IMG/VR virus record: IMGVR_UViG_3300025030_000131
Coordinates: 1-55,529 of that record
Reading direction: 5' to 3' (one strand)
DNA from: a virus
Length of the DNA stretch: 55,529 nucleotides
The translations under genes were made by a program, and so were the position numbers. Positions 719 to 19,650 of the stretch are shown piece after piece. The notes beneath the pieces are model-generated. The model was given only the letters and a program-made list of their open reading frames with translations, ran no database searches and had not been told where the DNA came from. Each line of letters begins with the position of its first letter. The stretch's first letter is position 1.

Positions 719-1513
719 ATGCTTGATAGCCAAGTGAGAAAACCAATTCAAGAAGCCTTTCCCGCCTTACAGTCTGGGCGTGAATTAGTTTGGTTTTCTT
801 GCGGCGCTGCCTCGGCTTGCACGGCAAAATTAGAAGTCGAGAAAAATCCAAACGTGGAGCTTCTCTATTGCAATACTTTGCCCTTTGAGCATCCAGATAA
901 TCCGCGCTTCATGGCCTGTGTTGAAAAATGGACTGGCAAGGAAATCAAGATTTTGCAGTCCGAGAAATACACTGATATTTTCGATGTTTGGCGAAAGCGT
1001 AAATTCATCTTATCTGCGCCTCCTGCGAGAATGGCAATTTGCACAATTGAACTCAAGCGAGCAGTCCGCGAACAGTATCAATCATTTGGCGATGTACACG
1101 CGTTTGGTTTTGGCGTGGATGAACTCGCCAGGATTGCCCGCTTCGAGCGCGATAATCCAGAGATTGCGCTTACATGGCCTTTGCGTGATGCTGGAATGAA
1201 CAAACAGGATTGTCTAAATATGCTCATGCAGGCAGGCATAGAACTTCCTGCCATGTATAAGCTGGGTTATAAAAACAATAATTGCATTGGTTGCGTGAAA
1301 GGCGGTAAAGGATATTGGAACAAAATCAGAGTAGATTTCCCCGAATATTTTTGGAACATGGCGCGATTTGAGCGCGAGATAAACGCCAGAGTTTTCAATG
1401 ATGTCTGGCTTGACGAACTTCCACCTACAGCAGGCCGCTATGAAAGCGAATATGAGATTGAGTGCGGGCCAGTCTGTGGGGCATTTCCAACAACGCGTGC
1501 AGCGGATGGCTGA
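719..1513 (+). CDS. PAPS reductase / N-type ATP-pyrophosphatase family protein
   Basis: A 264-residue protein resembling the phosphoadenosine-phosphosulfate reductase superfamily often seen in phages and in DndC-like enzymes. LVWFSCGAASACTA (about residues 24-37) sits at the position of the SGGxDS-type PP-loop that binds ATP or a nucleotide phosphosulfate, here with Cys and Ala replacements; later motifs include AICTIELKR and a Cys pair NNCIGCVKGG (about residue 186) like those that bind a metal or FeS cluster in relatives. The substrate is unknown: sulfate reduction, tRNA thiolation and DNA phosphorothioation are all known in the superfamily. It is the only gene of its cassette; its last codons overlap the left arm of the attC-like site 1485-1544. 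No clear ribosome-binding site. Confidence 0.75.
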   Translation: MLDSQVRKPIQEAFPALQSGRELVWFSCGAASACTAKLEVEKNPNVELLYCNTLPFEHPDNPRFMACVEKWTGKEIKILQSEKYTDIFDVWRKRKFILSAPPARMAICTIELKRAVREQYQSFGDVHAFGFGVDELARIARFERDNPEIALTWPLRDAGMNKQDCLNMLMQAGIELPAMYKLGYKNNNCIGCVKGGKGYWNKIRVDFPEYFWNMARFEREINARVFNDVWLDELPPTAGRYESEYEIECGPVCGAFPTTRAADG

Positions 1514-1544: not shown

Positions 1545-1580
1545 GCCCACTGGCTCAACGTGGGAGAAAAGGAAACGACA

Positions 1581-1790
1581 ATGATTGAAGATTTGAATAA
1601 GCGCTTTACCTATCACGCCCCGAAAGAAAACCAGCCGCAGAAGTATGAGAATATCCGCAAGAATGCGCTGGCATTTGCTGAATTGCTGAATGAGATGTGT
1701 CCTGATTCGCGCGAGAAGTCATTAGCAATAACGGCTCTCGAAGAAGCGGTAATGTGGGCAAACGCCTCCATTGCCCGCAATGAGGCATAA
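1581..1790 (+). CDS. Acb2/Tad1-like hairpin protein (cyclic-nucleotide sponge candidate)
   Basis: A 69-residue protein starting at ATG 1581 with AAAAGGA about 7 bases upstream; an in-frame GTG at 1560 is less likely. The signature SREKSLAITALEEAVMWAN followed by ASIARNEA, preceded by a short FTYHAP N-terminus and a first helix, matches my recollection of the Acb2/Tad1 helical-hairpin family. Characterised members form oligomers that sequester the cyclic di- and trinucleotides of CBASS and, in some cases, Thoeris signals, so that effector proteins are not activated. Length is at the short end of the family. It is the first gene of a cassette and is followed 1 base later by the gene at 1792. 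Family assignment by eye; ligand not predictable. Confidence 0.75.
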   Translation: MIEDLNKRFTYHAPKENQPQKYENIRKNALAFAELLNEMCPDSREKSLAITALEEAVMWANASIARNEA

Positions 1791-4906: not shown

Positions 4907-5269
4907 ATGACAAAAACAAAAAACACAGGACGTGGCATATCCACCCGTAAGCGGGAAATCCGCGACGCTCTCATGGGTAAAAAAACCGAAACTCAAATCA
5001 TGCTTGGTGAAATTAAGATAATGATGGGGGGTGGCACATTGGAATATCATACTTGGTTTGATCGTACATATAAACTTCGTGCCGCAGGGGATCAGGAAAA
5101 GTACGAGCAGGTGATCCGCAGGAAATACCTGTACCTGCTGAAAAAGACTCAAGTCCCATCCCCTGCCCCACTTCCAATAACTGACCACCTCCCACCCCTG
5201 ACTGCATCCAATGTCCTGAGTGATTGGATGTGCGCCAACTGGCATTTGATCCCGGAAGTGAGCTTCTAA
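4907..5269 (+). CDS. Hypothetical basic protein
   Basis: 120 residues from ATG 4907, chosen because AAGAAGGA lies just upstream; an in-frame ATG at 4889 has no ribosome-binding site. The N-terminal half is Lys/Arg-rich (GRGISTRKREIRDALMGKK), the C-terminal half Pro-rich with a final ANWHLIPEVSF. No family recognised. First gene behind the promoter at 4829; its stop shares one base with the next start (TAATG). Confidence 0.65.
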   Translation: MTKTKNTGRGISTRKREIRDALMGKKTETQIMLGEIKIMMGGGTLEYHTWFDRTYKLRAAGDQEKYEQVIRRKYLYLLKKTQVPSPAPLPITDHLPPLTASNVLSDWMCANWHLIPEVSF

Positions 5270-6477
5270 TGGCACTCGATCACACTTCCATCAGCCCTGA
5301 CCTGACTTTCAGGCAGTCCGAGATCGATCCCGTTATCCGTGATTATGTCTGCGCCGTCTGTCATCTCGACCTGGCTGTTCAATACATCCCCAACCATGAG
5401 CGGGTATTCATCGTTTGCCCCGATCATGGGAATGTCTGCCTAAGCGGTCGCGTCATGCGCTCCACGGTCTCGATCCAGATGGAAAACTCCGTCCGTGATT
5501 ATTACACCATGTTATCCGCTCTCCCCGACCTGTTTGGCAATATCTGGATGAACGGCATCCCTCGCGACCAGGCCTCTCGGATCGCGCATGTGTCTGTTTG
5601 CGCCCTGTGCGGGAGTCCTCTGGCTATGCAGTGTATTTGGGATGAGGATAAGCGTAAGATCCTGCCCGATATAGTCAGCCTGATGTGTTCCTACTCGCAT
5701 GGCAATGTTGGCCTGAACGGGATTGGATTCGTCCATCAATCGGATTACATTTTCGTCCCGCCCGTTGAGATACGCAGGGTAGAAAGACTCCGCCGGGATC
5801 TTCCCCAAAAACAACCATTGGATTTTAGCAAGCATCCGAAGTCTGCCGCCTTTGAAAAATTGGGCGTAATTTCCTTTGGGAACGGGCTGGAGTCCAACAG
5901 GAATGGCTCTGACCATTTTCGGGTGATGGTATCCAACAGAAACTACCCTACCCTGGCGAAACAATTCGGAAAGGAACTCGCCCGGCTCACTGTCCGACTC
6001 CCATCCCCCTCCATCACTGCGTCCCTGCACACGTCTTTGGAGTGCTACCGCAAAGGAGCCATGATCGCAAAGGCTGTCCGTGTCGAGGATGGGTCGTTTC
6101 GGTGGGAATATTACAGGGACCCGGATACACATGAGATTGACATTCGGGGCGGCCGCTCCCTCACTTTGGCCGGCCTGAGAATGTCCAATAAAGGCGTTGA
6201 TCTGGATGTGCCCATTTATAAAGACTCGAAGGGCGAGGGTCATCCCCTGCAACGTGTGGCGCGTATGCGCCTGGTCATCCCGGAACTGGCTGAGTTGAAT
6301 GGATCGCCCGTTACCGGGTATTTTGAAATGTCATTCAAGGACGATGATACAACCGTTATTGAGGAAGGAGTCCGTATTGCAAAACAACAAGGGAATACCG
6401 AGGGGTTGATGTTGAACGAAACACCCCTGACCCTATCCCTGAGGGATGGGCGGGTATATATTCAAAAAGGAGAATAA
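5269..6477 (+). CDS. Hypothetical protein with zinc-ribbon N-terminus; possible recombination-directionality-factor-like domain
   Basis: 402 residues from ATG 5269, overlapping the previous stop by one base. The N-terminal 150 residues hold two Cys pairs of zinc-ribbon type (CAVCHLD with CPDHGNVC; CALCGSP with CSYSHGNV). From about residue 195, KLGVISFGNGLESNRNG leading to DHFRVMV, FGKELARLTVRLPS and a final TGYFEMSF strand recall a widespread phage family with RDF gp3-like features (GxIxxG followed by FRV strands). That link is weak. It may act on DNA or with the recombinase at 43.9-44.8 kb, but nothing here shows it. Confidence 0.5.
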   Translation: MALDHTSISPDLTFRQSEIDPVIRDYVCAVCHLDLAVQYIPNHERVFIVCPDHGNVCLSGRVMRSTVSIQMENSVRDYYTMLSALPDLFGNIWMNGIPRDQASRIAHVSVCALCGSPLAMQCIWDEDKRKILPDIVSLMCSYSHGNVGLNGIGFVHQSDYIFVPPVEIRRVERLRRDLPQKQPLDFSKHPKSAAFEKLGVISFGNGLESNRNGSDHFRVMVSNRNYPTLAKQFGKELARLTVRLPSPSITASLHTSLECYRKGAMIAKAVRVEDGSFRWEYYRDPDTHEIDIRGGRSLTLAGLRMSNKGVDLDVPIYKDSKGEGHPLQRVARMRLVIPELAELNGSPVTGYFEMSFKDDDTTVIEEGVRIAKQQGNTEGLMLNETPLTLSLRDGRVYIQKGE

Positions 6478-8993: not shown

Positions 8994-11984
8994 ATGATAG
9001 CAATACCCGACCTGCAATGGTCAACAGCCAAAGAAATTCAAACAAAAAACGGTCCGCGCATGTTGCGAACCGCTGAGCCTACCCCCGATTTTTGGGAGTC
9101 CTGGCGCTCAAACAAAGATGCTCTTAAATTATTGGGAGTATCCTGTTCGCGCGATGAACGCTCCGGCGAATGGAAAATATGCTGGTGGCAGGAACTTACC
9201 GCCGAAACAAAACAGGAGCGCGCCGCATCGGTAGAGGCGTCGCGTGCCGTAAACGCAGAAATCGAACTTCCAAAACCGGATGGGCTGGATTACATGCCTT
9301 TCCAACGTGCCGGTATACGATATGCGCTTGATCGCCAAAATGTTCTAATTGCCGACGAAATGGGACTCGGTAAAACCGTAGAGACAATCGGCATTATCAA
9401 TGCAGACCCAGCCATTGCCAGCGTAGTTATTGTTTGCCCCAAATCCCTAAAGCTCAACTGGAAAAGGGAACTGGAAAAATGGCTTACCCGCCCGCTTTCG
9501 ATTGGTGTGGTAAACAATTCATGGCTCGCCTCAGATATTGTCATTCTGAACTATGAAGCGACTGGTAAATTTTCTGAACAACTCAAGGCGCATGAGTGGG
9601 ATGCGGTGATTGTAGATGAATGTTTTGTTGGAAATACTCTAATCGAAACCATCGAGGGTTCATGTCAAATAAAAGATTTACACCCTGGTATGCGCGTTGC
9701 GTCCTTCAATTTTTCAAGTAATGCGGTGGAATACAAAAAGATTTTGTATGTGAATCATCGACCAGCACCAAATATTTTATACAAAGTGGCTGGAAATGTA
9801 AGCACAGGCAACCATCCATATTATACAGAGGAGAGCGGTTATGTTAAGGCAAAGGAAATCTGTGGAAAGACTGTGCGAGCGTTGCGAAGTGTTATTTACA
9901 ACCCCGTCAAAGGGGAAGAATACCGCACGTTTTTGTTCGAGGAGATGCGTCAATATGGGAAACTCGTACGGCAAGAAACAAGTGCACAAAACGTACACGG
10001 CGACATGTCAGGAATGCGGGAAGGAGTTTATTCGAAGGGTTTTTGGACTCAGGTTTTGCAGTACGTATTGTTCTGCAATTTGGAGAGTAAGAACCATTAT
10101 CCATCCAGCCAAAAAGAACCCCAGCACTTTTCGAGAAAAAATTTCGAGCGGATTGAAAAGGGCTCATCACGAACGTCCTGGGTGGGCAAAAGAATCATCG
10201 AGGCGGATGAAAGAAAACAATCCAATGCTCAACGCCGACGCGCGCGAAAAAATGAAACAATCACTGACCGGGCGTACGTTTTTGGCGCGGGGAGGAAACG
10301 GAACGATTACGAGCCAACAAAAGAAACTTTTGAGCGCATTAGGATGGAGCGAGGATTGGTTAGAATATCCAATCAAGACGGCTTTAGCAAGCAAGAAATT
10401 CAAATCGCTTCCGAATTGCTACAAGGTGGACATAGCCAGCCCGAAACACAAATTAGCCATAGAGGTAGATGGCAAAACTCACAAACTGAAAAAATGGAAT
10501 TTTCTGGACAAACGAAAGACGGAGATTTTGAATTATTTAGGGTGGACGGTATTGAGATTTACGAACGAGGAAGTGGATCAGAATTTGAGCAGGTGTGCTC
10601 AGACGGTTTTGTCTACAATATCGAAGTAGAGGACAATAACAACTATTTTGCAAATGGAATATTAGTCCATAATTGTCACTACATCAAAAACAGCAAGGCA
10701 CAGCGCTCTAAAAATGTAAAATCAATACCATCACGCAGAAAAATCAGATTGACCGGGACACCAATCGTCAATAGGCCGATTGAACTTTATAACATCATAG
10801 AAGATTTACATAATGGTTTTGGTTCGTTTTTCTCGTTTGCCAAACGCTATGCCGGCGCACACAAAAATGGCTTCGGTTGGGACTTCTCAGGTGCTCAAAA
10901 TCTGGATGAACTGCAAAAACGATTACGAGAAACAATCATGGTGCGCCGTTTGAAAAAGGATGTACTCACAGAACTCCCACGGAAAATCCGTCAGATTGTG
11001 GAGGTGGAAGCCGACACTCCCGCCGCAAAACGGGCGGTAAAATCAGAACAGACTCATGAATCTGCGTCCGAAGAGAGACTGTCAAATCTCCGCGTATCTG
11101 TTGAGTTAAGCAAGGCGGAATCAGAGGATGCGTATAAATCAGCAGTTGCACGCTTGACAGAGGCGTCGCAGGTTGATTTTACTGAAATGGCCCGCTTGCG
11201 CCACGATACTGCTATGGCAAAAGTTCCCGCTGTGATAGCGCATATTACAAACGCGCTGGATGACAATGACAACAAAATTATTGTCGCCATCCACCACCAC
11301 GATGTAGCCGCCGCGCTTATGGATGGCCTGGCAGAGTTCTTTCCGGTTATTTTGACTGGCGAAAATAGCGAACAGGAACGAACTGCATCAGTGGACTCAT
11401 TTCAAAACGATCCGAAGGTGCGCGTGTTTATCGGCTCGATCACTGCCGCAGGAGTTGGGATCACCCTGACAGCTTCCTCGCATGTAGTGTTTGCCGAATT
11501 AGACTGGGTGCCGGGGAATATCTCGCAAATGGAGGATCGCGCTCATCGTATTGGTCAAACCGAAACGGTACTGGTGCAGCATATCGTATTATCCGATAGC
11601 CTGGATGCACGGATGGCAAATGCGATTATTTCAAAACAAAATGTGATAGACAATGCGCTTGATATTAACCATCCCGAACGCTCCGCGCCGGTGTATGAGC
11701 CAAAAAATAAAAGCGCATCTCATGGAGCGTCAGTATCCGAAATAGAGAAAATTGCAGAGACATTATCAACCGAACAATGTGCAATGATACATAATCAATT
11801 GCGTTATCTCGCCGGCATGGATGCCGACCACGCCAGCAGCTTGAATGGAATTGGATTCAACAAAATAGATACGCAGATTGGTCATGACCTGGCCGGGCGT
11901 GAGTGGCTTACTCCTAAACAGGCTGCGCTTGGAATTAAAATCTGTAAGAAATACCATAAACAGTTGATTGATTGGAAGGCATAA
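8994..11984 (+). CDS. SNF2-family DEAD-like helicase/ATPase containing an intein
   Basis: 996-residue precursor. After removal of the intein (residues 210-560) the extein is 645 residues. Motifs: Walker A DEMGLGKT (about residues 120-127), motif II VIVDE joined after splicing to CHYIKN (a DECH box), motif III LTGTP (about 586), and in the second RecA-like domain GVGITLTAS and EDRAHRIGQ (about 847-855), all typical of SNF2/Rad54-type ATPases that translocate on duplex DNA. Phage members are usually linked to replication or recombination. The C-terminal 100 residues are an accessory helical domain. It is followed at once by initiator and loader-like genes, so a replication role is likely. Confidence 0.9.
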   Translation: MIAIPDLQWSTAKEIQTKNGPRMLRTAEPTPDFWESWRSNKDALKLLGVSCSRDERSGEWKICWWQELTAETKQERAASVEASRAVNAEIELPKPDGLDYMPFQRAGIRYALDRQNVLIADEMGLGKTVETIGIINADPAIASVVIVCPKSLKLNWKRELEKWLTRPLSIGVVNNSWLASDIVILNYEATGKFSEQLKAHEWDAVIVDECFVGNTLIETIEGSCQIKDLHPGMRVASFNFSSNAVEYKKILYVNHRPAPNILYKVAGNVSTGNHPYYTEESGYVKAKEICGKTVRALRSVIYNPVKGEEYRTFLFEEMRQYGKLVRQETSAQNVHGDMSGMREGVYSKGFWTQVLQYVLFCNLESKNHYPSSQKEPQHFSRKNFERIEKGSSRTSWVGKRIIEADERKQSNAQRRRARKNETITDRAYVFGAGRKRNDYEPTKETFERIRMERGLVRISNQDGFSKQEIQIASELLQGGHSQPETQISHRGRWQNSQTEKMEFSGQTKDGDFELFRVDGIEIYERGSGSEFEQVCSDGFVYNIEVEDNNNYFANGILVHNCHYIKNSKAQRSKNVKSIPSRRKIRLTGTPIVNRPIELYNIIEDLHNGFGSFFSFAKRYAGAHKNGFGWDFSGAQNLDELQKRLRETIMVRRLKKDVLTELPRKIRQIVEVEADTPAAKRAVKSEQTHESASEERLSNLRVSVELSKAESEDAYKSAVARLTEASQVDFTEMARLRHDTAMAKVPAVIAHITNALDDNDNKIIVAIHHHDVAAALMDGLAEFFPVILTGENSEQERTASVDSFQNDPKVRVFIGSITAAGVGITLTASSHVVFAELDWVPGNISQMEDRAHRIGQTETVLVQHIVLSDSLDARMANAIISKQNVIDNALDINHPERSAPVYEPKNKSASHGASVSEIEKIAETLSTEQCAMIHNQLRYLAGMDADHASSLNGIGFNKIDTQIGHDLAGREWLTPKQAALGIKICKKYHKQLIDWKA
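9621..10673 (+). other. Intein in helicase motif II
   Basis: 351 residues, in frame with the helicase, from Cys210 to Asn560. N-terminal block A CFVGNTLIET, block B GNVSTGNHPYYTE (TxxH-like), C-terminal blocks F and G VYNIEVEDNNNYF and NGILVHN followed by Cys, the nucleophile of the C-extein. The host protein is cut within the DECH box, a typical intein site because it is highly conserved. Between the splicing blocks (residues about 285-530) the in-frame sequence is Arg/Ser/Gln-rich and does not look like a folded homing endonuclease; the endonuclease is encoded in another frame of the same DNA. Confidence 0.92.
9841..10629 (+). CDS. Out-of-frame homing endonuclease (VSR/DUF559-like) nested in the intein
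   Basis: 262 residues in the +1 frame relative to the helicase, wholly within the intein, with its own GAGGAG seven bases before the ATG. Two zinc-finger-like CxxC...CxxxC units (CERCEVLF with FCSRRC; CQECGKEF with FCSTYC), then a NUMOD3-like stretch (GLKRAHHERPGWAKESSRRM, KMKQSLTGR), then a nuclease core with LAIEVDGKTHKLKKW and LNYLGWTVLRFTNEEV, resembling VSR/EDxHD-type nucleases. It would cut intein-free alleles and so spread the intein. Both frames stay open for 789 bases. Confidence 0.85.
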   Translation: MLRQRKSVERLCERCEVLFTTPSKGKNTARFCSRRCVNMGNSYGKKQVHKTYTATCQECGKEFIRRVFGLRFCSTYCSAIWRVRTIIHPAKKNPSTFREKISSGLKRAHHERPGWAKESSRRMKENNPMLNADAREKMKQSLTGRTFLARGGNGTITSQQKKLLSALGWSEDWLEYPIKTALASKKFKSLPNCYKVDIASPKHKLAIEVDGKTHKLKKWNFLDKRKTEILNYLGWTVLRFTNEEVDQNLSRCAQTVLSTISK

Positions 11985-11986
11985 AG

Positions 11987-12790
11987 ATGAAACTTTCAGA
12001 ATTTCTGTCAGATGTTGGTCGCCCTGTCGCGTTTTATCCAACCCTGGTGAAAGCCTTTGGGGATCGAAATGAGGCGATATTTATTTGCCAAATGGCCTAT
12101 TGGCGCGGCAAAGGTGAAAGTGAGGATGGCTGGATTTATAAAACTTCCGACGAAATAGAGGCCGAAACATCACTAACATATAAAGAACAAACCAACGTCA
12201 GAAACGGGCTGAAAAAGAAAGAATTGCTCAAGGAAAAACACGTCCGCACCGAGCATAAAATGTATTTTCGGGTCGATTGGGATAAGGTAAATTCTTTGTG
12301 GGGGCAGTTTACCGATGGTAAGGTGGTGCATATTACCAAAAGTAAACTGCCACCCTCCCCAAAGAAGGGTGGCAGTTTACCCGTTGGCATTTCGTTAAAT
12401 AGTAATACAGAGAATACAGCAGAGAATACAACAAAGATTAAAACCAGCGTGGAGAAACCCGCAAAACCACCGACACCGCCCGAAGTAAAGCTATTCCGGG
12501 AGGCGACTGGCCGATACCCCGCAAGATCATCATTTACAACCGTTGTAGATGCCATCCAAAAAATAGGAAAACGTCTGGGGCGGGATGTGATTTGTGATGA
12601 TCTCAAACCATTTTTGACAGATTGGACTGACCGTGGGTGGAATCCAATGAATCTAGCATGGTTGAAGGAATGGGCAGTAATTGGCTCGATTCCGACAAAT
12701 GGAAAGAAACCTGCTTTCCAACTGCGGGAGTCCGCGAACCGCGCCGCCCTTGCTACAATGAAATTTGACGATGAAGGGAATCTAATCTAA
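11987..12790 (+). CDS. DnaD-like replication initiation protein
   Basis: 267 residues from ATG 11987, three bases after the helicase stop. The N-terminal 110 residues form a winged-helix-like domain (FYPTLVKAFGDRNEAIFICQMAYWRG, TSDEIEAETSLTYKEQTNVR, KYFRVDWDKV-type wing), as in phage replication initiators; a low-complexity Ser/Thr/Lys linker (130-160) leads to a C-terminal domain with LFREATGRYPARSSF. Such proteins bind the origin and recruit the host replisome, which fits the absence of a phage DNA polymerase. Stop and next start share one base (TAATG). Confidence 0.65.
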   Translation: MKLSEFLSDVGRPVAFYPTLVKAFGDRNEAIFICQMAYWRGKGESEDGWIYKTSDEIEAETSLTYKEQTNVRNGLKKKELLKEKHVRTEHKMYFRVDWDKVNSLWGQFTDGKVVHITKSKLPPSPKKGGSLPVGISLNSNTENTAENTTKIKTSVEKPAKPPTPPEVKLFREATGRYPARSSFTTVVDAIQKIGKRLGRDVICDDLKPFLTDWTDRGWNPMNLAWLKEWAVIGSIPTNGKKPAFQLRESANRAALATMKFDDEGNLI

Positions 12791-14433: not shown

Positions 14434-15762
14434 ATGAAACAAATAACATCGTTGTCAACCGAGCGAGTTGCGAGGTTCCGGGAGTTTGTAGATAAGTGGA
14501 CACACCTCGGATTGTCCACCAAGCCGGCTAACCACCCAGGGGCTGAGGACGCTCTGCGAAGGGCGTATCAAGTGGCCGGCCTGACACCTCCAAAATTTAT
14601 TGTGTGGATGAAAAGCCCGCGCGACGCAGTCTTGGCATGGGCTTTGATCTTGTCCTGGATAGTTGACGACCAAGTGAGCGACCAAGTGAGCGCCCAAGTG
14701 ATCGACCAAGTGCGCGCCCAAGTGATCGACCAAGTGCGCGACCAAGTGAGCGACCAAGTGAGCGACCAAGTGCGCGCCCAAGTGAGCGCCCAAGTGAGCG
14801 CCCAAGTGCGCGACCAAGTGCGCGCCCAAGTGCGCGCCCAAGTGATCGACCAAGTGCGCGACCAAGTGAGCGACCAAGTGAGCGACCAAGTGCGCGCCCA
14901 AGTGAGCGACCAAGTGCGCGCCCAAGTGCGCGACCAAGTGATCGACCAAGTGATCGACCAAGTGATCGACCAAGTGATCGACCAAGTGATCGACCAAGTG
15001 AGCGACCAAGTGTTCGCCCAAGTGAGCGACCAAGTGATCGACCAAGTGATCGACCAAGTGATCGACCAAGTGATCGACCAAGTGCGCGCCCAAGTGAGCG
15101 ACTATATCCAACAACGCTGGTGGTGGACCGGCTGGGGCAATCAGGAATGGTGGTTGTCCTGGATCGATTACTTCGGCTCCGCCGTTGGAATATCGGCAGA
15201 AAAAATCCATCCATTACTTGATCTCGCAGAACACGGCCATTGGTATTGGCCGATGCAGGGTATCGCCGTGATGTGTGAAAGACCTTTGGCTATTCGGCGC
15301 GACGGACGCGGAAGATTGCATTGCGACGATGGACCGGCAGTGGAGTACGAAGGCTGGACGATCTATGCCGTGGATGGAATGGGGATCCCTGATTGGATCG
15401 TGGAGTGTAAGGACCAGATCACACCTGAACGCATCAACGCCGAAAAAAACGCGGAAATTCGCAGGATCATGATGCGCTTCTATGGTTGGGATCGCTGGCT
15501 GGAAAACGTCAAGGCGAAACTTATTGACCGGGATCCAGACCCCACCATTGGGGAGTTGTGGTCATTCAAAGACGTGGATGGTGTGACCGTGAAAATACTT
15601 AAGGTTCGTAATGGCACAAGGGAAGTAGACGGATACCGCAGCTTTTCTTTGCGCGTGGACTCGGATTGCGAGACTGCACTCAAGGCAAACAGGTGGACAT
15701 ATCCTTCCTGTCGTCAAATGTCGGAGCAAGATTACCGTATTCTAAATTCTGCAAGATCATAA
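14434..15762 (+). CDS. DUF6745-type protein with long DQV tetrapeptide repeat
   Basis: 442 residues. The N-terminus (ERVARFREFVDKWTHLGLST, GAEDALRRAYQVAGLTPP, SPRDAVLAWALI), the middle (VMCERPLAIRRDGRGRLHCD, DGPAVEYEGW) and the C-terminus (NAEIRRIMMRFYG, then DGYRSFSLRVDS) fit the DUF6745 family. Residues 79-222 are 36 copies of a four-residue unit (D/A)QV(S/R/I/F). Family members often carry such a repeat of varying length at this point. Biochemical role unknown to me. It is followed by the small gene at 15777, a pairing I have seen with this family. Preceded by AAAGGAG about 9 bases before ATG. Confidence 0.75.
   Translation: MKQITSLSTERVARFREFVDKWTHLGLSTKPANHPGAEDALRRAYQVAGLTPPKFIVWMKSPRDAVLAWALILSWIVDDQVSDQVSAQVIDQVRAQVIDQVRDQVSDQVSDQVRAQVSAQVSAQVRDQVRAQVRAQVIDQVRDQVSDQVSDQVRAQVSDQVRAQVRDQVIDQVIDQVIDQVIDQVIDQVSDQVFAQVSDQVIDQVIDQVIDQVIDQVRAQVSDYIQQRWWWTGWGNQEWWLSWIDYFGSAVGISAEKIHPLLDLAEHGHWYWPMQGIAVMCERPLAIRRDGRGRLHCDDGPAVEYEGWTIYAVDGMGIPDWIVECKDQITPERINAEKNAEIRRIMMRFYGWDRWLENVKAKLIDRDPDPTIGELWSFKDVDGVTVKILKVRNGTREVDGYRSFSLRVDSDCETALKANRWTYPSCRQMSEQDYRILNSARS
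14668..15099 (+). repeat. 36 tandem 12-base units within the coding region
   Basis: Units of the form (gac/gcc)CAAGTG(agc/cgc/atc) repeat 36 times without a gap or an off-length unit. Variation is confined to the first and last codon of each unit. Six-unit blocks recur at a 10-unit distance (units 5-10 and 15-20), and runs of identical DQVI units occur (23-27, 31-34), signs of slippage or unequal exchange. Confidence 0.95.
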
Positions 15763-17857: not shown

Positions 17858-18481
17858 ATGACAAACAACCTAGAAACAGAAAACAGCGGGCGGGGATGTA
17901 TTCAACTCCTCAGCCTGGTTGCGTTTATTTGGGGGGCAATGATGATGTTTCCCAAAACGGTGGATCTGCTTACCAACTTCTCCCCCAACGAATTCATGGG
18001 TTATACCGATATGGCCGGCTGGTGGGCTATGGGTTCCGCCCTCCTGATCGAGGGTGTAATGGTCATTATGAAGATCAAAACCTGGGTCAGCCCATCCCGT
18101 AACCTGGTTGAATGGCTTTGGGATATTATTTTGTCTGTTTCCCCGTTCATCCTGTCCACATTCGCACAGATATTTGATGGGATGTTGGTACGCGATACGC
18201 TCTCTGAGCAACCGGCAGAAATTCAACTTCTGGTAACGTGGCTGGTGCCCGGCCTGCCTTCCATCATGATCGGACTTCTCATCGCCTTCGCATTGGTGGA
18301 ATCGGCGCCTGCCGGACTCTTCGGCGGGATGAGGGTAGGTAGTGTTGGCAATCCCCGCCTGCCAACACTCAAAAACCCATTTACAGCCCTGCGTGATTGG
18401 TGGCAGCGCGGTCCCAATCCCTCCAACACCAAGGGGAGTGGTAAGGCAAACCCTACCAAACTGCCAACACCTCAGCCCTAG
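17858..18481 (+). CDS. Multi-pass membrane protein
   Basis: 207 residues with AAAGGATG upstream. About four hydrophobic segments (near residues 15-32, 55-73, 85-105 and 125-150) and a Pro/Asn/Lys-rich cytoplasmic-type tail (GPNPSNTKGSGKANPTK). No family recognised. The last third of the gene carries three copies of the TGCCAACAC/GTGTTGGCA nonamer, one of which overlaps the stop region. Confidence 0.65.
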   Translation: MTNNLETENSGRGCIQLLSLVAFIWGAMMMFPKTVDLLTNFSPNEFMGYTDMAGWWAMGSALLIEGVMVIMKIKTWVSPSRNLVEWLWDIILSVSPFILSTFAQIFDGMLVRDTLSEQPAEIQLLVTWLVPGLPSIMIGLLIAFALVESAPAGLFGGMRVGSVGNPRLPTLKNPFTALRDWWQRGPNPSNTKGSGKANPTKLPTPQP

Positions 18482-19204
18482 TGTTGGCAGAGGAGAATGA
18501 CGATGAAGAAGAAATTGCCAACACCCGCCCCGATGAAACAGTCCAATTTCAAGGCTCCGACCGCCCCAATCCTGCAATTGTCCGCCGGCGCGCCTACTGG
18601 AAGGACCGCAGCAGGGCAACCCTACAAACCATCAGCAGGCGCGATCTCAGTGGACGCATCAACCCCTTATACGACGCCTATGCCTCCGATGTCTCCGAAT
18701 ATCAGAGACGTAGACGAGCAAAACGCGGCAATCCTGAGAGCCGCCGCCAATCAACTGTTGTCAGCCGGCTTCATGAGGAAAGTCAGATCCCGCAAGAGCA
18801 ACGAGGTCAAATTGTGCATGTCCCTGGATTTGTGGACGGAGGACTTGAAGCTACGCTAATGCTGGCAGGAAAGGAGTCACATGAAACCTATGAGTAATTC
18901 ACTGTTGGCAATCTTTATATTGGTGTTGGCAGGCGTAGCCTGTACGAAGGCCACGCCTGCACCTGGGAGTTCCGCATCCCTGCCAACACCAACCCTTGAA
19001 TACGCCACACCCGGGTCCTTATCTGCCCCGACTCCGCCTATTGCCAACACCTGTCAGGCTGTTGTAAGCGCTGGCCAGGCAGGTGTTGGCAGACTCAGAC
19101 TTCGCTCCGGTCCTGCCAACACTTACCCGGAAATAGATGTGTTGACGGATGGGCAGGTGATCCAGGTCTTGGGAGTGGACGGCGATTGGCTCAGGGTGTT
19201 GGCA
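18341..19204. repeat. Cluster of GTGTTGGCA / TGCCAACAC nonamers
   Basis: Exact plus-orientation copies start at 18342, 18481, 18923, 19083 and 19196; exact inverted copies at 18360, 18462, 18516, 18981, 19042 and 19114; TGTTGGCA also at 18903. Neighbouring copies pair into hairpins (18341-18369, 18461-18490, 18481-18524, 18922-18990, 19041-19092, 19083-19122). The copies fall in different reading frames and in four genes, so selection or copying acts on DNA or RNA, not on the proteins. I did not notice exact copies elsewhere in the window. Confidence 0.9.
18503..18859 (+). CDS. Pro/Ala-rich hypothetical protein
   Basis: 118 residues from ATG 18503, eight bases after GAGGAG; ATG 18497 is too close to that site. 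Low-complexity N-terminal half (KKKLPTPAPMKQSNFKAPTAP...), then a helical part (NAAILRAAANQLLSAGFMRKV). The frame starting at 18481 is also open (138 codons) but Arg/Glu-rich and without a ribosome-binding site. Start codon and ribosome-binding site lie in the loop of a hairpin made by the nonamers at 18481 and 18516. Confidence 0.5.
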   Translation: MKKKLPTPAPMKQSNFKAPTAPILQLSAGAPTGRTAAGQPYKPSAGAISVDASTPYTTPMPPMSPNIRDVDEQNAAILRAAANQLLSAGFMRKVRSRKSNEVKLCMSLDLWTEDLKLR

Positions 19205-19258
19205 AACGGCGAGGAAGGCTATGTATACTCGGATTATGTCGAGGAGTGCGATGAGTAA
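18881..19258 (+). CDS. Lipoprotein with bacterial SH3-like domain
   Basis: 125 residues, AAAGGAG just upstream. A signal peptide with lipobox (LLAIFILVLAGVAC, Cys21) would anchor it to the outer face of the membrane; a Pro/Thr/Ser linker leads to an SH3b domain (LRLRSGPANTYPEIDVLTDG, GDWLRVLANGEEGYVYSDYV). Phage-encoded small lipoproteins often block superinfection by related phages, and the strong early promoter fits, but SH3b domains also bind peptidoglycan. It carries six of the nonamer repeats. Confidence 0.8.
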   Translation: MKPMSNSLLAIFILVLAGVACTKATPAPGSSASLPTPTLEYATPGSLSAPTPPIANTCQAVVSAGQAGVGRLRLRSGPANTYPEIDVLTDGQVIQVLGVDGDWLRVLANGEEGYVYSDYVEECDE

Positions 19259-19464: not shown

Positions 19465-19650
19465 ATGCCAGTACCGCTTATTACCTATCTATATATTATT
19501 CTTGTCCTAGCTGATGTAATGTGTATACCTGTGGCAATTGTGAAGCGGGATTACCCCATACTTCATGGACTCTTATTTGCCCTGCCGTGGTTGTTGATCG
19601 GACTGTCATTTCATTACAATGTCTGCCCGTTTATTTTTTGTGCAGGATAA
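19465..19650 (+). CDS. Small membrane protein
   Basis: 61 residues, two hydrophobic helices (LITYLYIILVLADVMCIPVAIV and LHGLLFALPWLLIGLSFHY) joined by KRDYP. GCGAGG upstream. Unknown role. Confidence 0.6.
   Translation: MPVPLITYLYIILVLADVMCIPVAIVKRDYPILHGLLFALPWLLIGLSFHYNVCPFIFCAG

What the first reader, a model, noticed from the sequence alone, without database searches (positions are those of the whole stretch)
18341..19204. Eleven exact copies of a nonamer in 0.87 kb, in both orientations
GTGTTGGCA occurs five times and TGCCAACAC six times, plus an 8-base copy. By chance about 0.01 copies would be expected in this length. They run through at least four genes in different frames, so the pressure is on nucleic acid. 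Iterons of an origin, a centromere-like (parS-type) site, a repressor array, or repeatedly copied hairpins are all possible. In a phage with DnaD and loader-like proteins an origin is attractive.
Basis: seen in the sequence. Interest (0 to 1): 0.82.

Follow-up and report, generated by a model that had tools for sequence, protein, structure and literature searches.

The report
Phage genes studded with GTTGGCA words
A block of four small, partly overlapping genes in a family of uncultured phages is packed with copies of one short DNA word in both directions; each phage keeps its own spelling of the word across the block, which points to a DNA-binding protein that reads it, but what that binding does is not yet known.

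Summary
In detail: GTGTTGGCA occurs 11 times (5+, 6-) in 18342-19204 and nowhere else in this 55,529-base phage record (0.30 expected). Eight further IMG/VR records carry the same gene block (membrane protein, overlapping genes A and B, lipoprotein-like protein), three of them found by protein alone. All nine blocks are enriched for GTTGGCA; in eight of nine it, or an overlapping word, is the most clustered two-strand 7-mer of the sequence held; L307 is weak. Proteins diverge and copies change place, but density persists. Each phage has its own spelling (GTGTTGGCA, GCGTTGGCA, CTGTTGGCA), shared across genes of different ancestry (0 of 2000 shuffles). Both orientations and several reading frames are used. 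This fits double-stranded DNA sites read by a protein acting in trans; gene A's product is only a candidate. An origin is possible but not favoured: spelling does not follow the initiator, and a GC-skew extreme at the array is special to this phage. Helical spacing did not replicate; hairpin evidence is weak. Gene A and membrane-protein queries found nothing in 50,697 GenBank phage records.

The parts
18342..19204 (.). array: 11 exact GTGTTGGCA (5+,6-) plus CTGTTGGCA at 18902
   Evidence: most clustered two-strand 7-mer of the window
18342..18368 (.). inverted pair, 10-bp arms around a short loop
18462..18489 (.). inverted pair, 10-bp arms
18920..18992 (.). inverted pair with 14-bp matching arms
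19042..19091 (.). inverted pair with 12-bp matching arms
17858..18481 (+). membrane protein (own reading of its hydrophobic stretches); array starts in its C-terminal tail
   Evidence: no Pfam/PHROGs match (15, 16)
18481..18897 (+). gene A, small basic protein (listed start lies in a motif copy); homologous to L009 gene A (40% id)
   Evidence: low-confidence model of the window copy (110)
18497..18859 (+). gene B, overlaps A in another frame; a like overlap in the relatives
18881..19258 (+). lipoprotein-like protein with SH3_3 domain
   Evidence: (PF08239 E 2.9e-14)
11972..12790 (+). replication initiator, O-like/DnaD-like; candidate reader of the array in the origin rival
   Evidence: phrog_9773 E 8.6e-29; phrog_6493 E 1.9e-13

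Best explanation
The array is a local, redundant cluster of double-stranded DNA recognition sites (consensus A-[G/C]-[T/C]-GTTGGCA in eight phages) for a protein acting in trans. Many copies bind that protein in either orientation and build a nucleoprotein patch over the block membrane protein - A - B - lipoprotein. Shown: clustering, conservation in relatives, both orientations, several frames, turnover of positions with density kept, and one spelling per phage across genes of different ancestry. Inferred: that a protein reads it; that the phage encodes it; that the best single candidate is gene A's product (present in 9 of 9 blocks, but the blocks were found through the word or through gene A, so this is not independent evidence); and that the patch controls or organises this block (local silencing or operator use is my first guess).
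For: Unique clustering. Protein-selected relatives L305, L307, L308 carry 17, 7 and 7 GTTGGCA in the block against 0.3-0.4 expected, 0 of 1000 shuffles each. Flanks beyond about 3 bases carry little information in 95 copies of 8 phages, so copies are not pieces of a longer duplicated unit. Positions turn over: 4 of 14 L029 sites are still SYGTTGGCA at the aligned place in L305, although both blocks hold 14-15 such sites in the aligned stretch. Spelling agrees across genes within a phage: 0.62 against 0.33, 0 of 2000; wider word set 0.39 against 0.19, 0 of 1000. The genes are a mosaic: L063's membrane protein matches L029/L305, its gene A matches L271, its lipoprotein matches the window's, yet its copies are mostly GCGTTGGCA in all three. 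Orientation 50+/45- speaks against a single-stranded RNA reader. Gene A model of L305: strand-strand-strand-helix, block-mean pLDDT 76-90 over residues 61-110.
Against: No binding protein is shown. Gene A has no Pfam match that passes a cut-off, no PDB match at E 0.001, VIA Z at most 3.8 to unrelated chains, and the window's own gene A model is poor (mean pLDDT 54.7). Helical phasing, expected for some cooperative binders, looked significant in the first six loci but failed in the two added ones (p 0.40). In L029/L305 motif columns are not more conserved than the rest (54.5% against 59.2%). L307 has only a diffuse set with no dominant spelling. The spelling test does not correct for shared ancestry.
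Confidence: 0.5

Rival explanations
1. Replication origin: the copies are iterons bound by the phage's O-like/DnaD-like initiator.
For: O-like or DnaD-like initiators in the six phages examined; cumulative GC-skew maximum of the window at 18348; an AT-rich stretch at 19478 (74% in 50 bp).
Against: Spelling does not follow the initiator (few pairs). A skew extreme at the array is not seen in the other records, and in the window gene direction also changes nearby. A skew maximum by the usual convention would be a terminus. AT-rich stretches as strong occur elsewhere in the window.
Confidence: 0.17
2. Hairpins in RNA or single-stranded DNA: inverted copies fold and are read or act as structure.
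For: Region folds better than 20 shuffles (z -2.7); some pairs have 13-15 bp arms; flanks of neighbouring opposite copies match a little more than expected (p 0.043 and 0.026).
Against: Opposite neighbours are not in clear excess (48 of 87 adjacent pairs); some loci have runs of one orientation (L046, L271); no Rfam family at gathering score.
Confidence: 0.13
3. A copying or recombination process: short words spread by slippage, template switching or recombination between phages, with little function.
For: Positional turnover; a 42-nt difference between L063 and L271 that carries an inverted pair; the block's genes are mosaic.
Against: Flanks carry little shared sequence; most gains and losses lie in gap-free aligned stretches; the same core recurs in nine divergent phages.
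Confidence: 0.13
4. Centromere-like site of a plasmid-like prophage, bound by a partition protein.
For: Clustered asymmetric short repeats in both orientations, as recalled for some plasmid centromeres.
Against: No ParA/partition pair was recognised in the ORFs I searched; integrase-like ORFs in L046, L063 and L305 (own reading of translations) suggest chromosomal integration.
Confidence: 0.07
5. Peptide-level repeats or chance.
For: Same-orientation spacing is often a multiple of three (25 of 39).
Against: Four different peptides from one word in the window; 0 of 100 and 0 of 1000 shuffles.
Confidence: 0.02

Closest known systems
Cluster O mycobacteriophage 17-bp repeats (PMC4351075; passages read)
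   Same: Many copies of one short word, about a third within coding regions, function unknown, thought to be bound by a protein and mostly not tied to promoters.
   Different: There: a dyad with 7-bp arms, 34 copies over the whole genome. Here: an asymmetric 9-mer, one cluster in one gene block, and spelling that differs by phage.
Cluster A mycobacteriophage stoperators (as described in PMC4351075; rest recalled)
   Same: Asymmetric short sites, many copies, phage-borne.
   Different: Stoperators are spread over the genome and oriented with transcription; here both orientations in one cluster.
Lambda-type origin iterons bound by O protein (recalled; PMC7466680 seen only in a search listing)
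   Same: Repeated short sites inside coding sequence, O-like initiator in the phage.
   Different: Lambda's lie inside the initiator gene; here they lie kb away over other genes, with irregular spacing, and spelling does not track the initiator.
pSM19035 omega-protein heptad repeats (recalled only)
   Same: Short asymmetric repeats in direct and inverted orientation.
   Different: Those are contiguous and next to promoters; no omega-like protein was recognised here.

Membership tests
Iteron origin of an O-type initiator | O-like/DnaD initiator in the phage | tested here: met
   six phages examined; window 11972-12790 phrog_9773 E 8.6e-29; L271 by its match to the window's
Iteron origin of an O-type initiator | site spelling follows the initiator | tested here: not met
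   L063/L271 share GCGTTGGCA without related initiators (E 0.30); L029/L271 related N-termini, different spelling; few pairs
Iteron origin of an O-type initiator | initiator binds, replication starts there | not testable with these tools
   needs binding assay and marker frequency
Iteron origin of an O-type initiator | regular helical spacing | tested here: inconclusive
   p 0.0008 for same-orientation neighbours in six loci, p 0.40 in two added loci
Stoperators | one orientation relative to transcription, scattered | tested here: not met
   50+/45-, one cluster per record
Cluster O type repeats | 17-bp dyad, genome-wide | tested here: not met
Partition centromere | partner ParA/ParB genes | tested here: inconclusive
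   none recognised among the ORFs searched; not all ORFs were searched; ORF 53977-55245 matches DNA methyltransferase and ParB-like families
RNA hairpin element | opposite neighbours in excess, conserved pairing | tested here: inconclusive
   48 of 87 opposite; flank pairing p 0.026; z -2.7
Known RNA family | Rfam gathering score | tested here: not met
   0 matches in 5 sources

The most novel reading that the evidence does not exclude
A self-addressed gene block: a phage-encoded small protein reads a word written many times, in either direction and any permitted frame, through its own overlapping genes, and each lineage rewrites the whole set in its own dialect, also in genes taken over from other phages, so that the protein marks or silences only its own block.
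Probability: 0.15. Interest if true: 0.85.

Novelty: new variant of a known kind. Interest (0 to 1): 0.62.

Why it matters
It shows a DNA-level code laid over overlapping protein genes and kept by number rather than position, with a phage-specific spelling. Because each phage is a natural swap experiment, it makes testable which protein reads the word and how reader and sites change together. It also gives a marker for a phage group whose block was not found in the GenBank phages searched.

Tried and rejected
Helical phasing: promising in six loci, not replicated in L305+L308; dropped. 21-bp spacing (9 cases): none in L305/L308; same-orientation spacings are mostly multiples of three, which fits reading frames. 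GC skew as origin mark: not general. RNA family: none. Defence families: only one weak match, E 0.0032. PDB fold of gene A: no Foldseek hit at E 0.001, VIA best Z 3.8, no sequence match at E 10; a family not listed there is not excluded. Host: Chloroflexota was guessed from the lipoprotein style (recall); portal 0 of 400 genomes (no positive control), gene A alignment 1 of 400, a match with a stop inside and no GTTGGCA within 3,195 bases; host unknown. Genome-collection scan with TGCCAACRCTN{0,30}AGYGTTGGCA: 66 stretches, none with a dense two-strand array of the window type. Of 38 viral stretches with the first pair pattern, 3 were relatives with the block (L009, L029, L046); L063 and L271 came; the rest were judged by motif density and tblastx, not one by one; some are one-strand coding repeats (e.g. 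L110), one is another context (L074). Papers; no description of this array was seen in their listings; PMC4351075 read in passages, the others seen only as listings.

Full report
Observation. GTGTTGGCA occurs 11 times in 18342-19204 and not elsewhere in the 55,529-base virus record; shuffles give 0.30 on average for the whole record and never more than 2. A twelfth site is CTGTTGGCA at 18902. The array starts in the tail of a membrane protein (17858-18481), runs through two overlapping small ORFs, here called A (18481-18897) and B (18497-18859), and through a lipoprotein-like protein with an SH3_3 domain (18881-19258). The copies read as VLA/LLA, VG, LPT and ANT.

Relatives. Scans of viral contigs for close pairs of the word led to five records with the same block: L009, L029, L046, L063 and L271. 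Gene A is about 11-64% identical between records, depending on pair and method, and A overlaps B in another frame. Because those records were found through the word, I searched for the block by gene A protein alone: three new records came up, L305, L307 and L308. GTTGGCA counts in the blocks are window 12, L009 7, L029 15, L046 8, L063 19, L271 10, L305 17, L307 7, L308 7; expected 0.26-0.44 each, and no shuffle of 1000 reached the observed count in any of the nine. L307 is weak: its copies have no common spelling, and the shared core there is GTTGGC.

An unprompted check: among all 7-mers with at least two copies on each strand within 1.2 kb, the word or an overlapping form is the most clustered in 8 of 9 sources; the ninth, L307 (6.3 kb held only), gives 5 copies of a related word. 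The sources were the window, L009, L063 and L305 whole, and 40,000 of 45,570 (L029), 60,000 of 61,500 (L046), 40,000 of 41,325 (L271) and 40,000 of 43,425 bases (L308). In the window a one-strand 12-base tandem repeat at 14667-15102 is denser. In the six whole records with the block that were searched with SYGTTGGCA, each has a single cluster.

Spelling. The window, L029 and L046 use mostly GTGTTGGCA, L063 and L271 GCGTTGGCA, L305 and L308 CTGTTGGCA; L009 adds many TGTTGGCG and L046 several GTGTTGGAG. Within a phage the spelling agrees between different genes of the block: 0.62 of 285 cross-gene pairs against 0.33 expected, 0 of 2000 shuffles (88 of 95 copies used, L307 left out); with a wider word set and L307 included 0.39 of 507 pairs against 0.19, 0 of 1000. 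The genes have different histories: L063's membrane protein matches those of L029 and L305, not L271's, while its gene A matches L271's and its lipoprotein the window's. A spelling shared across such a mosaic is hard to explain by inheritance of each gene with its sites, and fits a common reader. The permutation does not correct for shared ancestry of L063 and L271 or of L029 and L305, and only the window and L063 have copies in the membrane-protein gene.

Turnover. Between L029 and L305, 4 of 14 sites of L029 are still sites at the aligned place in L305; motif columns are 54.5% identical and the rest 59.2%. Between L063 and L271, motif columns are 73.3% identical and the rest 55.2%; one difference is a 42-base stretch with an inverted pair present in L271 only. 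So number is kept better than place.

Mechanism. In 95 copies of eight phages, orientation is 50+/45- and the flanks beyond about three bases carry little information. A reader of single-stranded RNA would need one orientation. Hairpins are possible for some pairs, and the fold of the region is better than 20 shuffles (z -2.7), but opposite neighbours are not in clear excess and flank pairing is weak. Helical phasing did not replicate. I therefore favour double-stranded sites for a DNA-binding protein. Gene A is the natural suspect by position; its model in L305 has three strands and a helix with fair confidence, with no fold match; the window's copy models poorly.

Origin. An O-like or DnaD-like initiator is present in the window, L009, L029, L046, L063 and L271. 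The window's skew maximum lies at 18348. In the seven other records the skew extremes lie away from the array, or at a record end where they say nothing (L308's array lies near its record's end). Spelling does not follow the initiator. The origin remains a rival.

Known things. No relative of gene A (L305) or of the L063 membrane protein was found in 50,697 phage records by tblastn; the window's portal has distant relatives there. The closest described case found is the Cluster O mycobacteriophage repeat (PMC4351075, passages read), which is a dyad and genome-wide.

Noticed in passing
window 14667-15102: 12-base tandem repeat, 36 copies, inside the ORF 14434-15762 that carries DUF6745.
   Followed up: no
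window 1560-1790: Acb2/Tad1 hairpin-domain protein (PF24729 E 2.7e-23), perhaps an anti-CBASS/Thoeris sponge (function recalled).
   Followed up: no
window 8994-11984: SNF2-type helicase with a weak PT-HINT match between its halves, possibly an intein.
   Followed up: no
window 719-1513: Phosphoadenosine phosphosulfate reductase-like protein (phrog_424 E 5e-41).
   Followed up: no
L074 11908-12175: Six exact GTGTTGGCA in about 240 bases near a serine recombinase-like ORF and a RepA-like ATPase ORF (own reading of translations), no block genes; may be an unrelated site using the same word.
   Followed up: partly
L197, L212, L216, L220, L227, L230, L234, L241: Short inverted pairs TGCCAACRCT...AGYGTTGGCA, all 21 bases long, recur in several contigs of two Candidatus Uhrbacteria genomes.
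   Followed up: no
window 5224-6477: Weak match to a recombination directionality factor-like family (Gp3-like, E 0.0012, below cut-off).
   Followed up: no
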